Below are positions 26,318 to 30,235 of a DNA stretch of 64,000 nucleotides, piece by piece (the first letter of the stretch is position 1; the number at the start of each line of letters is the position of its first letter). This stretch comes from Litoreibacter ascidiaceicola (GTDB lineage Bacteria; Pseudomonadota; Alphaproteobacteria; Rhodobacterales; Rhodobacteraceae). The notes beneath the pieces are model-generated. The model was not told the DNA's origin. It did no database searches and worked only from the letters and a program-made list of their open reading frames with translations. The stretch covers positions 1-64,000 of the forward strand of contig NZ_FQUV01000007.1 in the NCBI RefSeq assembly GCF_900129235.1, in the 5' to 3' direction. The translations under genes were made by a program, and so were the position numbers.

Positions 26318-26739
26318 TCGTTGTCGCGGACCAACGGAACGCGGGAGCTACCATAGGTCAGCCCCTCCGGCTTGGCGCGGCCCAGCGGGTCGTCGCCATA
26401 CCCGTTCGGTCCCTCGTCACCCGGCAAGACCGCAAGGATCAGCAGGGCAAGCTGGCCGAAAGGCACAACACCCAAAAGCACCAACCACGTGGTCAGCCCT
26501 TTGTCATGCAACCGCCGCGCCATCACGGCGAGGGATGCCGGAAACAGCCCCAGCAGGAAGACCACTGGCGGCCAAAGCACATCATCGCCGGATTCCACCG
26601 AGAGAATGGTGTAGATGGCGGTGACAATCAGGCCCCCGTAGAAGATCACGAAAAACCACCAGAACTCCGCCCGCGCTGCGCGCCCGCGCCACTGAAAGCT
26701 TTTTGAAAGGCAGGAGCGGAGGGCTGCGACCGGTCCCAT
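26314..26739 (-). CDS. DUF805 family membrane protein
   Basis: A 141-residue membrane protein with the DUF805 pattern: an N-terminal WRGRAARAEFWWF segment, then about four helices, with RRLHDKG before the third. Function of the family is unknown. It is the last gene of the pyrB operon, and its start overlaps the plsY stop (TGATG). Convergent with gshA, overlapping by 4 nt. Confidence 0.88.
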   Translation of the reverse strand: MGPVAALRSCLSKSFQWRGRAARAEFWWFFVIFYGGLIVTAIYTILSVESGDDVLWPPVVFLLGLFPASLAVMARRLHDKGLTTWLVLLGVVPFGQLALLILAVLPGDEGPNGYGDDPLGRAKPEGLTYGSSRVPLVRDND

Positions 26740-27356
26740 CAGCTTTTCCTAAGTTGGATTTTTTTCTCAGTACCGCTCAGAATTCGACGAATATTGCCCG
26801 CATGGCGCATCCAGATCAGCGCGCCCAGCAACGCCGCCAGCATCACGTAACTTGGCAGGCCCATGAAGTGCAGCCAAAGTGGCATCAGCGCCGCTGCGGC
26901 TAATGCGGCGAGCGACGAAATCCGGAAAGCCAGCGCGAAGGCCAGCCATGTCAGGCAAGCCGCCAGCCCCGCGAAGAACGACAGCGCCAGCAGGGTGCCA
27001 AGGTATGTCGCGACGCCCTTGCCGCCGTTGAAATTCAGCCAGACGGGGAAGATGTGGCCGATGAAGGCGGCCAGCCCTGCCAGCTGCGCGGCATCCTCAC
27101 CGATGAAGAACCGTGCCAGCAAAACCGCGATGCCGCCCTTGCCCGCGTCCAGCAACAACGTCGCCAAAGCGGCGCTTTTGGAGCCGGTGCGCAGCACGTT
27201 TGTGGCCCCGATATTGCCCGATCCGATCTGGCGCAGGTCGCCGAGGCCCATGGCCTTGGCAATGACCAACCCGAAGGGGATGGAGCCGAGCAGGTAGGAC
27301 GCGACGGCGACGAAAACCAGAAGGTAGGGGGCGGTAACGATCTCAGGCACGGGCAT
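26739..27356 (-). CDS. plsY: Acyl-phosphate:glycerol-3-phosphate acyltransferase
   Basis: A 205-residue integral membrane enzyme that makes lysophosphatidic acid from acyl-phosphate and glycerol-3-phosphate. All three conserved loops are visible: GSIPFGL near residue 25, RQIGSGNIGATN near 45, and the GHIFPVWLNFNGGKGVAT region near 100. The ATG at 27356 is preferred; it overlaps the dihydroorotase-like gene end by 14 nt. Its place at the end of a pyrimidine operon links membrane lipid synthesis to the genes upstream. Confidence 0.95.
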   Translation of the reverse strand: MPVPEIVTAPYLLVFVAVASYLLGSIPFGLVIAKAMGLGDLRQIGSGNIGATNVLRTGSKSAALATLLLDAGKGGIAVLLARFFIGEDAAQLAGLAAFIGHIFPVWLNFNGGKGVATYLGTLLALSFFAGLAACLTWLAFALAFRISSLAALAAAALMPLWLHFMGLPSYVMLAALLGALIWMRHAGNIRRILSGTEKKIQLRKS

Positions 27357-28641
27357 ACACCTCCGTGCCACCAACGAAGGTGCGCAGCACGCGGCCTTGC
27401 ATCCGTTGCCCGTCAAACGGGGTGTTCTTGGATTTGGACCGGAGCGTTTCGCGATCCATCACGAACGGTGCATCAGGGTCGAACAGCACCAGATCGGCGG
27501 GCGCACCGACGCTTAGGCGACCCCCTTCCAAACCTAGCCGCTTGGCGGGGTTCAGAGACAGCGCGCGCCACAGAGTCGGCAGGTCTATCGCACCGACATG
27601 CAACAGACGCATTGCTGCGGGCAGTAGGGTTTCCAAGGCAACTGCGCCTGACGCGGCTTCCTCGTAAGGCAGGCGTTTGCTTTCCTCGTCCTGCGGCGTG
27701 TGCATTGAGCAGATAATATCGATCAGGCCGGACGCCACGGCCTCCACCATCGCCACGCGGTCATCTTCGGACCGTAGCGGCGGCTTGACCTTGAAGAAGG
27801 TACGGTAGTCGCCGACGTCCAGATCGTTCAGCGTCAGGTGATGGATCGACACGCCAGCGGTTACGTCCAGACCGGCCGCCTTGGCGCGTTCCAGAACCGG
27901 CAGGGCCACGGCCGTGGATATCTGGTCGGCGTGGTAGCGCACGCCGGTCATCTCGACCAAGGCTAAGTCCCGCTCCAGCCCCATCCGTTCCGCCATGGGG
28001 GAAACGGCGGGTAGCGCGCGTAGCGAGGCGAACTTGCCCGACGTCACGGCGCTGCCTTTCGACAATCCCGGGTCTTGCGGGTGGCCCATGACCAGCGCGC
28101 CAAGGCCGCGGGCATAGGTCATCGCGCGGCTGAGAACTTTGTTGTCGGTGACCACGTTGTCGCCATCGGAAAACGCCACCGCGCCTGCGTCCATCAGGAA
28201 ACCCATCTCGACCATCTCGCGGCCTGCGCGGTCTTTGGTCAGCGACGCCATCGGCGCGATGCGGACGGGGGCCATCTCCGCGCCGCGACGTTTGGTGAAT
28301 TCCAGCGTTTCGGGGGTGTCGACCGTGGGAATGGTGTCGGGGCGGGTGACCATGGTGGTGACCCCACCTGCTGCTGCCGCCAGCCCTGCCGTGCGGAAGC
28401 TTTCTTTATGCCGCTCGCCGGGTTCGCAAACCTTCACGCCGATATCCACGATGCCGGGGGCAAGGCACTTGCCGCCGCAGTCCACACGGTTCCCCGCGGG
28501 GAACCTTTTGTCATTCAGATCAACATCTTGCGTTAATATTTCGTTTATCCGCCCGTCCTTGACGAGCAAAGCGCCAAGAGTCAGCGTTCCGGCCTCGGGG
28601 TCGATCAGTCGCGCGTTGGTTAAAAGCAGGTCAGCCATCAA
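27343..28641 (-). CDS. Dihydroorotase-like protein lacking metal ligands (PyrX-type pseudo-enzyme)
   Basis: A 432-residue amidohydrolase-fold protein clearly homologous to class I dihydroorotase: overall length, APGIVD, FSDGDNV, ISTA, HHLTLND and LNPAKRLGL all align. However, the first metal motif HxH is replaced by Gly68-Val-Lys70, and the catalytic Asp of the TDHAPH block is Met313 (CSMHTPQ). It is therefore probably inactive. In Pseudomonas a similar degenerate homologue (PyrC', PyrX) is needed as a structural partner of aspartate carbamoyltransferase; being two genes downstream of pyrB supports that role. An active pyrC should exist elsewhere. It overlaps the upstream gene by 4 nt. Confidence 0.88.
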   Translation of the reverse strand: MMADLLLTNARLIDPEAGTLTLGALLVKDGRINEILTQDVDLNDKRFPAGNRVDCGGKCLAPGIVDIGVKVCEPGERHKESFRTAGLAAAAGGVTTMVTRPDTIPTVDTPETLEFTKRRGAEMAPVRIAPMASLTKDRAGREMVEMGFLMDAGAVAFSDGDNVVTDNKVLSRAMTYARGLGALVMGHPQDPGLSKGSAVTSGKFASLRALPAVSPMAERMGLERDLALVEMTGVRYHADQISTAVALPVLERAKAAGLDVTAGVSIHHLTLNDLDVGDYRTFFKVKPPLRSEDDRVAMVEAVASGLIDIICSMHTPQDEESKRLPYEEAASGAVALETLLPAAMRLLHVGAIDLPTLWRALSLNPAKRLGLEGGRLSVGAPADLVLFDPDAPFVMDRETLRSKSKNTPFDGQRMQGRVLRTFVGGTEVYARA

Positions 28642-29177
28642 AGCCCCGTGTAATAAAAGTACATGATTGCGGCGGCCGAAACCATCGCCGCCATCGCGAT
28701 CACCGCCAGTCGCGCCCCAAATCCACGCCCTTGCTTCGCATCGGCCGCGGGGCCCTCGAGCACACCTTTGGCGGCGTCGCTGTCCAGCGGGGTAAACTTC
28801 GGCGCGGGGGCGCGGCCTTCGGTGAAGGTGGCGACCAGCTTGGCGTTTTCAGTTAGCTTCAACAGCACAGGTTTTTTCTCAAACGCGGCGCTGCGGATCA
28901 GCATCAACGCGGATGTGGTATGTGGAATTTTCGACATGTTGACGGCTTCCGGAGCGATGTCATAGCCCTCGACCAGCAGGCGTCTCAATTCATCCTCGGA
29001 AAGCTCACCTGCATTTAGGCTCTGCATTTCTTGTGGGTCCAGACGTGTGCCCCCCAAGGCGCGCTCCAAGTTTTCGCTGTCACCCTTCAACGAATAGGGG
29101 AGCGCCACGTCGTCGGTGATTTGGAATACGCGTAGCAAACCGGTTTCGTGTTTCGATATCTCGAGTGGATTGTCCAT
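28638..29177 (-). CDS. Tail-anchored protein of unknown function in the pyrB operon
   Basis: A 179-residue protein not assigned to a family. Residues 1-145 are soluble and acidic, with a middle segment that looks like an alpha/beta domain (LMLIRSAAFEKKPVLLKL). Residues about 155-176 are a single hydrophobic helix at the extreme C-terminus, preceded by a basic KQGRGFGAR, so it is likely tail-anchored with the bulk in the cytoplasm. It begins 3 nt after the 33-aa mini-protein stop and overlaps the pseudo-dihydroorotase start by 4 nt. Context suggests a membrane link for the PyrB complex; that is inference. Confidence 0.75.
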   Translation of the reverse strand: MDNPLEISKHETGLLRVFQITDDVALPYSLKGDSENLERALGGTRLDPQEMQSLNAGELSEDELRRLLVEGYDIAPEAVNMSKIPHTTSALMLIRSAAFEKKPVLLKLTENAKLVATFTEGRAPAPKFTPLDSDAAKGVLEGPAADAKQGRGFGARLAVIAMAAMVSAAAIMYFYYTGL

Positions 29178-29180
29178 TGG

Positions 29181-29282
29181 TCAGCCCCCCAGCCAAATCA
29201 TAAGACCCGTGAACGCAAAGATGCCGAGCAGGGCATACATGGCCACCTTGCCAGAGGTGCGCGGGTCTTTGGGTTCGTTCAC
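29181..29282 (-). CDS. 33-residue single-helix membrane mini-protein between pyrB and the tail-anchored gene
   Basis: A 34-codon frame read directly from the minus strand: GTG start at 29282 overlapping the pyrB stop as GTGA, and TGA stop at 29183-29181, 3 nt before the next start. The product has a polar basic head ([11 protein letters not shown]) and one hydrophobic helix (about residues 15-31: [17 protein letters not shown]), ending Gly-Gly. The exact nesting between two coupled genes makes chance unlikely. No family recognised. Confidence 0.72.
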
Positions 29283-30235
29283 ACCATCACCCCTTGCTCT
29301 TGCGCGGCCTCGCGCCGCGTTCGCACGAGCAGCTCCATGGCGGCCATGCGGACGGCGACGCCCATTTCGACCTGCTCTTGGATTACGCTTCGGTTGATGT
29401 CGTCGGCCAGCACGCCGTCAATCTCTACGCCGCGGTTCATCGGGCCGGGATGCATAATGATGGCGTCGGATTTGGCGTAGGACAGCTTTTCCGGGTCCAG
29501 CCCGTAGCGGTGGTAATACTCGCGCTCGGACGGGATGAAGCCGCCATCCATGCGCTCCTTCTGGAGGCGCAGCATCATCACCACTTCCACGTCTTTGAGG
29601 CCCTTGCGCATGTCCTCGAACACTTCGACGCCGAACTCCTCCATGCCTGATGGCATCAGGGTTGGCGGGCCGATCAGGCGGACGCGGTTTTCCATTTTGC
29701 CCAGCAGCAGGATGTTGGAGCGCGCGACGCGGCTATGGGCGATATCACCGCAAATGGCGATAGACAGGCGGTGCAGGCGCCCCTTGGCGCGGCGGATGGT
29801 CAGGGCGTCCAGCAAGGCCTGCGTGGGATGTTCGTGCCGCCCGTCGCCCGCGTTCAGCACGGCGCAGTTGACCTTCTGGGCCAGCAAATCCACCGCACCC
29901 GAATGCGGGTGGCGCACGACCAAAAGGTCGGGGTGCATGGCGTTCAGCGTCAGGGCGGTGTCGATCAGGGTTTCGCCCTTCTTCACCGAAGACGCCTGCA
30001 TCGCCATGTTCATCACATCGGCGCCTAGGCGCTTGCCTGCGATTTCGAACGACGCCTGCGTGCGGGTGGAGTTCTCGAAGAACATGTTGATCTGGGTCAG
30101 GCCCGCCAGCGTGTCGGAATGTTTCACGTCGCGGCGGTTCAGGTCGACATATTGGTCGGCCAGATCAAGCAGGGTGGTGATTTCATCGGGGGCAAGATGT
30201 TCAATCCCTAGCAGATGCTTCGCGCGGAATGTCAT
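29279..30235 (-). CDS. pyrB: Aspartate carbamoyltransferase catalytic subunit
   Basis: A 318-residue enzyme making N-carbamoyl-aspartate in pyrimidine synthesis. The carbamoyl-phosphate loop [13 protein letters not shown] is near residues 53-65, with the HPTQALLD and MMLRLQKER blocks further on. [11 protein letters not shown] near the end is the aspartate-binding motif. No regulatory pyrI is adjacent; instead a degenerate dihydroorotase lies downstream, as in the class A ATCase arrangement of Pseudomonas. It leads a six-gene coupled minus-strand operon. Confidence 0.97.

What the first reader, a model, noticed from the sequence alone, without database searches (positions are those of the whole stretch)
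27343..28641. Dihydroorotase homologue that has lost its metal site
The HxH ligands are Gly and Lys and the catalytic Asp is Met, while the rest of the fold is conserved. This is the pattern of a structural pseudo-dihydroorotase (PyrX) working with PyrB. Automatic annotation as pyrC would wrongly assign the third pyrimidine step to this locus.
Basis: partly seen in the sequence, partly recalled or inferred. Interest (0 to 1): 0.55.

Follow-up and report, generated by a model that had tools for sequence, protein, structure and literature searches.

The report
Inactive dihydroorotase that supports PyrB
A gene that databases would call the pyrimidine enzyme dihydroorotase has lost the residues that hold its metal and is best read as the known kind of inactive partner (PyrX) of the neighbouring enzyme PyrB, while a separate intact dihydroorotase sits elsewhere in the same genome.

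Summary
The gene at 27343-28638 (-) encodes a 431-residue type-I dihydroorotase homologue with a confident dihydroorotase fold (pLDDT 92; best match the Aquifex dihydroorotase-ATCase complex). Of six metal/catalytic positions it keeps only the beta-site His180, dispensable in Aquifex; the others read H61G, H63K, D153G, H232Q and D305M. In 81 of 81 closest sequences exactly one of the six positions is kept, and dN/dS is low, as for pyrB. pyrB was found beside the gene in 76 of 80 family loci and 29 of 30 class loci. The same assignment is published for Sinorhizobium meliloti smc01361 (disruption gives pyrimidine auxotrophy) and shown biochemically for Pseudomonas aeruginosa. So this is a new member of a known kind, of modest interest. 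Possibly new, but minor: the dead site carries a near-fixed replacement set among the closest relatives, though not in more distant ones of the family, and small ORFs with hydrophobic segments lie between pyrB and pyrX in part of the family. Inactivity and dependence of PyrB on it were not measured.

The parts
27343..28638 (-). pyrX: type-I dihydroorotase homologue without metal site, 431 aa (ATG at 28638; the listed ORF starts at a TTG at 28641)
28432..28440 (-). former HxH motif, now G67-V68-K69
28162..28164 (-). G159 in place of alpha-ligand Asp153 (Aquifex numbering)
28081..28083 (-). H186, the only one of six metal/catalytic positions kept (beta-site His180)
27922..27924 (-). Q239 in place of beta-ligand His232
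27703..27705 (-). M312 in place of catalytic Asp305
29279..30235 (-). pyrB, aspartate carbamoyltransferase catalytic subunit, 318 aa, upstream of pyrX on the same strand
   Evidence: NF002032 405 bits, cut-off 263
29181..29282 (-). 33-aa ORF (GTG start) with one hydrophobic segment, between pyrB and the 179-aa ORF; similar stretches in 36 of 80 family loci (tblastn E <= 0.01)
28638..29177 (-). 179-aa ORF without a Pfam or NCBIfam match, with a hydrophobic C-terminus, overlapping the pyrX start; similar stretches in 19 of 80 family loci (tblastn E <= 0.01)
26739..27416 (-). plsY (glycerol-3-phosphate acyltransferase), listed ORF overlaps the 3' end of pyrX; frequent downstream neighbour

Best explanation
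This gene encodes PyrX, a catalytically dead type-I dihydroorotase retained as the structural partner of PyrB. As in class A ATCases, dimers of it would hold two PyrB trimers in a dodecamer and so make or stabilise active ATCase. The cyclisation of carbamoyl aspartate would be done by the separate type-II PyrC. Shown here: homology, predicted fold, loss of the metal site, conservation of the substitutions in close relatives, purifying selection, gene order with pyrB, an intact second PyrC, and no PyrI match. Inferred from S. meliloti and Pseudomonas: lack of activity, binding to PyrB, dodecamer formation, and need for PyrX by PyrB.
For: Five of six metal/catalytic positions are lost, including all three alpha-site ligands and D305. 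The one kept, His180, was dispensable in Aquifex: the H180A/H232A double mutant kept activity with a 21% lower Vmax (PMC3880350, abstract and passages). The AF2 model has mean pLDDT 92.1 and matches Aquifex DHO in its ATCase complex best (3d6n, TMq 0.94, rmsd 1.8; 4bjh and 3d6n Z 57.8 and 57.2, tied, 422 aligned). Intact type-II PyrC in the same genome. No PyrI: 0 matches in G000, while 7 of 14 control genomes ring. pyrB was found on the same strand in 76 of 80 family loci and 29 of 30 class loci. PyrX homologue at E <= 1e-80 in 99 of 100 family genomes and type-II PyrC over cut-off in 97 of 100. dN/dS of pyrX 0.059-0.107 in four pairs, like pyrB 0.042-0.123 (dS is above 1 in three of the four pyrX pairs, so the ratios are rough). 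Published: S. meliloti smc01361 beside pyrB, disruption gives pyrimidine auxotrophy, proposed as PyrX (PMC5929573, passages); P. aeruginosa pDHO inactive but necessary for ATCase activity (PMC7053772, abstract, introduction and passages).
Against: Nothing was measured for this protein. Loss of zinc ligands does not prove inactivity: PMC2770081 (passages) says a Zur-regulated PyrC paralogue with non-conserved zinc residues was reported to have dihydroorotase activity. One family genome of 100 (G276) has the PyrX but no type-II PyrC match, and the TIGR00857 search of it gave only its PyrX, a dihydropyrimidinase and two weak partial matches; a gap in that draft assembly is possible. Of the 99 PyrX matches, one (G254) has an internal TGA and one (G302) covers only residues 183-429; G327 has none at that limit. 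At class level 57 of 241 genomes had no NF006558 match at all, so the gene is not universal.
Confidence: 0.9

Rival explanations
1. The protein is a dihydroorotase, or a related cyclic amidohydrolase, that works without the canonical zinc site, as a second activity beside PyrC.
For: The predicted fold is intact and the protein exceeds the TIGR00857 cut-off. A Zur-regulated PyrC paralogue without the zinc residues was reported to be active (PMC2770081, passages). Putative dihydroorotases of the PRK09060 family in G256 and G289 read DSQVHFREPG, lacking the first His.
Against: Here all three alpha ligands and D305 are gone, as are R65, N95 and H309 (substrate role recalled). The two PRK09060 proteins keep the second His and a DHAPH motif. 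A complete type-II PyrC is present.
Confidence: 0.05
2. Besides its structural role (so not exclusive of the best explanation), the former active site has become a ligand-binding or regulatory pocket that lets PyrX sense a metabolite and tune PyrB.
For: The replacement residues are nearly fixed in the 81 closest sequences (G 80, K 80, M or F 81, D101 81, H186 81 of 81).
Against: Those 81 are close relatives (best-segment identity 71% or more), and fixed packing residues would give the same pattern. More distant family members differ (G256 DMRVFIGEPG, G289 DFNVSIGEPG), as do the class loci (R 22 of 30, F 26 of 30, D305 position variable). For P. aeruginosa the authors argue that nucleotides act by destabilising the dodecamer, not allosterically (PMC7053772, abstract). 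No ligand is known.
Confidence: 0.1
3. The gene is a decaying relic without function.
For: The active site is lost; one of 99 family matches has an internal TGA (G254).
Against: dN/dS 0.059-0.107, an intact ORF here, presence in 99 of 100 family genomes, and auxotrophy on disruption of the S. meliloti relative.
Confidence: 0.01

Closest known systems
Sinorhizobium meliloti smc01361 (proposed PyrX), PMC5929573
   Same: Alphaproteobacterial dihydroorotase homologue next to pyrB, annotated dihydroorotase, with an essential PyrC elsewhere; disruption gives pyrimidine auxotrophy (passages).
   Different: Its residues at the six positions were not read here by name. The 30 class loci examined mostly carry R and F where the window has G and K.
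Pseudomonas aeruginosa pDHO/PyrX and P. putida PyrC' (class A2 ATCase)
   Same: Inactive dihydroorotase homologue required by the ATCase chain, with an E. coli-like PyrC as another paralogue. P. putida paper: seen only as title and citation in other papers.
   Different: Not aligned here residue by residue. The P. aeruginosa catalytic chain is reported monomeric without pDHO; the state of this PyrB is unknown. The window has two small ORFs between pyrB and pyrX.
Aquifex aeolicus DHO-ATC complex (class A1), 3d6n and 4bjh
   Same: Same predicted fold: TMq 0.94, 33% identity to 3d6n.
   Different: Aquifex DHO has H61, H63, D153 and D305 and is active in the complex; the window protein keeps none of these four.

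Membership tests
PyrX / pseudo-dihydroorotase of class A2 ATCase | Type-I dihydroorotase fold and sequence | tested here: met
   TIGR00857 312.7 bits, cut-off 279.05; model pLDDT 92.1, best match 3d6n/4bjh
PyrX / pseudo-dihydroorotase of class A2 ATCase | Loss of zinc ligands and catalytic Asp | tested here: met
   One of six positions kept
PyrX / pseudo-dihydroorotase of class A2 ATCase | Gene paired with pyrB | tested here: met
   pyrB 29279-30235 upstream, same strand, two small ORFs between; pyrB found in 76 of 80 family loci and 29 of 30 class loci
PyrX / pseudo-dihydroorotase of class A2 ATCase | Separate intact PyrC in the same genome | tested here: met
   C11:221830-222849, six of six E. 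coli ligands
PyrX / pseudo-dihydroorotase of class A2 ATCase | No dihydroorotase activity | not testable with these tools
   Inferred from the lost site
PyrX / pseudo-dihydroorotase of class A2 ATCase | Needed for PyrB activity or assembly into a dodecamer | not testable with these tools
   Inferred from S. meliloti and P. aeruginosa
Active dihydroorotase PyrC (as automatic annotation would say) | Alpha-site ligands H61, H63, D153 and catalytic D305 | tested here: not met
   G, K, G, M
Class B ATCase with PyrI | pyrI in the genome | tested here: not met
   PF01948: no match in G000, 7 of 14 control genomes ring
NCBIfam NF006558 (PRK09059, dihydroorotase) | Score over the curated cut-off of 645 bits | tested here: not met
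   508.6 bits, the best of the library for this protein but below the cut-off; at class level only 4 of 241 genomes exceed it

The most novel reading that the evidence does not exclude
In the window's closer relatives the dead active site has been rebuilt into a new conserved pocket (G67, K69, D101, H186, M/F312) that binds a ligand or fixes a conformation needed to control PyrB, and in part of the family the small proteins with hydrophobic segments encoded between pyrB and pyrX tether the ATCase complex to the membrane.
Probability: 0.05. Interest if true: 0.5.

Novelty: new member of a known kind. Interest (0 to 1): 0.2.

Why it matters
It corrects a misleading label. 99 of 100 family genomes hold this gene, and the one annotated relative looked at is labelled pyrC, dihydroorotase; how widespread that label is was not surveyed. 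Metabolic models built on it would place the third pyrimidine step at the wrong gene and misread knock-out phenotypes. It also extends the published S. meliloti and Pseudomonas findings to the Rhodobacteraceae-type bacteria around Litoreibacter.

Tried and rejected
Active PyrC as the main reading was rejected on residues, with an intact PyrC elsewhere. Relic rejected on dN/dS and distribution. Sequencing error rejected because L014 has the same residues.

A first idea, that Lys69 takes the place of zinc and pairs with two Asp ligands, was dropped. It rested on reading D158 as D153 and D238 as H232. The alignment with Aquifex numbering shows that the true columns are G159 and Q239, so those two calls and the checkpoint note are corrected.

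The other full-length amidohydrolase of the genome found by these searches (C11:129187-130533) is a dihydropyrimidinase, not a dihydroorotase (TIGR02033 584.8 bits); a weak partial match at C12:94641-94919 (E 8.6e-4) was not followed. The degenerate DNA motif search found 29 of 100 genomes and only shows how exact that motif is; the protein search is the one to count by. Paper searches: 40 papers, 20 listed; 139, 20 listed; none; 19, 15 listed; 7; 8. I saw no Rhodobacteraceae PyrX study in those listings, but they are partial and subscription journals are mostly not held. (plasmids) was used to find an annotated relative.

Full report
What is there. The ORF at 27343-28641 (-) is intact. It probably starts at the ATG at 28638, which overlaps the stop of the upstream ORF as TGATG, giving 431 residues; numbering below uses that start. 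The protein belongs to the type-I dihydroorotases: TIGR00857 312.7 bits over a cut-off of 279.05, and best NCBIfam hit NF006558 at 508.6 bits but below its cut-off of 645. The nearest solved sequences are Aquifex and Bacillus dihydroorotases. A model from 66 aligned sequences has mean pLDDT 92.1. It matches the Aquifex dihydroorotase in its ATCase complex best (3d6n, TMq 0.94), with VIA-align Z 57.8 for 4bjh and 57.2 for 3d6n over 422 residues, which are tied.

The active site. In Aquifex the zinc ligands are H61, H63 and D153, with D305 next closest; H180 and H232 are the beta-site residues, and the H180A/H232A mutant stays active, with a 21% lower Vmax (PMC3880350, abstract and passages). 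Aligned with Aquifex, the window has G67, K69, G159, H186, Q239 and M312 at H61, H63, D153, H180, H232 and D305. So only H180 is kept. R65, N95 and H309, which I recall as substrate-binding, are C71, D101 and Q316. The L. meonggei record L014 has the same nine residues.

Relatives. With the window, 81 of 81 keep exactly one of the six positions. Counts: H61 position G 80, S 1; H63 K 80, Q 1; D153 C 60, G 18, A 3; H180 H 81; H232 Q 68, others 13; D305 M 76, F 5. At class level, 184 of 241 genomes have an NF006558 match at E <= 0.001, which also counts other amidohydrolases, and 57 have none. Among the 30 best-scoring of those loci none has both H61 and H63; they keep 0 (3 loci), 1 (19), 2 (7) or 4 (1) of the six, with R (22 of 30) and F (26 of 30) commonest at the HxH positions. 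These 30 were chosen by score, so they are not a random sample. Two more distant family members, G256 and G289, read DMRVFIGEPG and DFNVSIGEPG there. So none of the PyrX-like relatives whose residues were read keeps both His of HxH, but the G/K set belongs to the closer relatives. dN/dS of pyrX in four pairs is 0.059-0.107, pyrB 0.042-0.123, plsY 0.079-0.230; dS is often above 1, so these are rough.

Surroundings. Upstream on the same strand are pyrB (NF002032 405 bits), a 33-aa ORF and a 179-aa ORF; downstream is plsY. pyrB was found in 76 of 80 family loci and plsY in 78; in class loci, 29 of 30 each. Of the four family loci without pyrB, three have pyrX within 500 bases of a locus end; L029 has the full 4-kb flank and shows none. 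Stretches like the 33-aa ORF were found in 36 of 80 family loci and like the 179-aa ORF in 19 of 80, none in the 30 class loci, at tblastn E <= 0.01. Both have one hydrophobic segment (19-residue Kyte-Doolittle maxima 2.08 and 2.05); membrane insertion is inferred only.

Second dihydroorotase. G000 (22 contigs, 99.98% complete) has one type-II PyrC, 412.8 bits over a cut-off of 292.95, with H16, H18, K102, H139, H177 and D250, the E. coli ligands as listed in PMC2770081 (passages). A dihydropyrimidinase is also present. PyrI gave no match. Across 100 family genomes, PyrX is found in 99 at E <= 1e-80; among these G254 has an internal TGA and G302 a partial match, and G327 has none. Type-II PyrC is over cut-off in 97 of 100. 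Of the three others, G256 and G289 have a PRK09060 dihydroorotase, and their pyrX-like genes also lack HxH; G276 shows only its PyrX, a dihydropyrimidinase and two weak partial matches. G276 is the one case that speaks against the simple picture; it may be an assembly gap.

Literature. PMC5929573 (passages) proposes that S. [quoted passage not shown] its disruption gave pyrimidine auxotrophy and a PyrC encoded elsewhere is essential. PMC7053772 (abstract, introduction, start of methods and passages) reports for P. aeruginosa that the pDHO is inactive, yet necessary for ATCase activity. PMC4581275 (passages) lists ATCase with active or inactive dihydroorotase as one of three prokaryotic types. 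The finding is thus a known kind. A caution is PMC2770081 (passages): a Zur-regulated PyrC paralogue without conserved zinc residues was reported to be active, so residue loss alone is not proof.

Verdict. Observation confirmed; interpretation supported at about 0.9; novelty low. The open points are the near-fixed replacement residues in the dead site of the closer relatives and the small ORFs between pyrB and pyrX; neither has a tested function.

Noticed in passing
window 28638-29282 (-): Two small ORFs with hydrophobic segments (33 aa and 179 aa) lie between pyrB and pyrX; similar stretches occur in 36 and 19 of 80 family loci and in none of 30 class loci (tblastn E <= 0.01), and the pyrB-pyrX gap in family loci varies from nothing (L018) to about 3.4 kb (L065).
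   Followed up: partly
L125 (G289) and L126 (G256): Putative dihydroorotases of the PRK09060 family read DSQVHFREPG, with Gln in place of the first His of HxH but DHAPH kept; an HxH rule alone would misjudge them if they are active.
   Followed up: partly
G276 (L127, L130): A family genome with PyrX but no type-II PyrC match and no other clear dihydroorotase found.
   Followed up: partly
L122: A class-level relative next to pyrB keeps four of six metal/catalytic positions (R for H61 and A for D153), a possible intermediate in loss of the site.
   Followed up: no
L124 (Ruegeria sp. TM1040 megaplasmid): The pyrB-pyrX-plsY group, with a hypothetical gene between pyrB and pyrX, sits on an 822-kb megaplasmid and the pyrX is annotated pyrC, dihydroorotase.
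   Followed up: no
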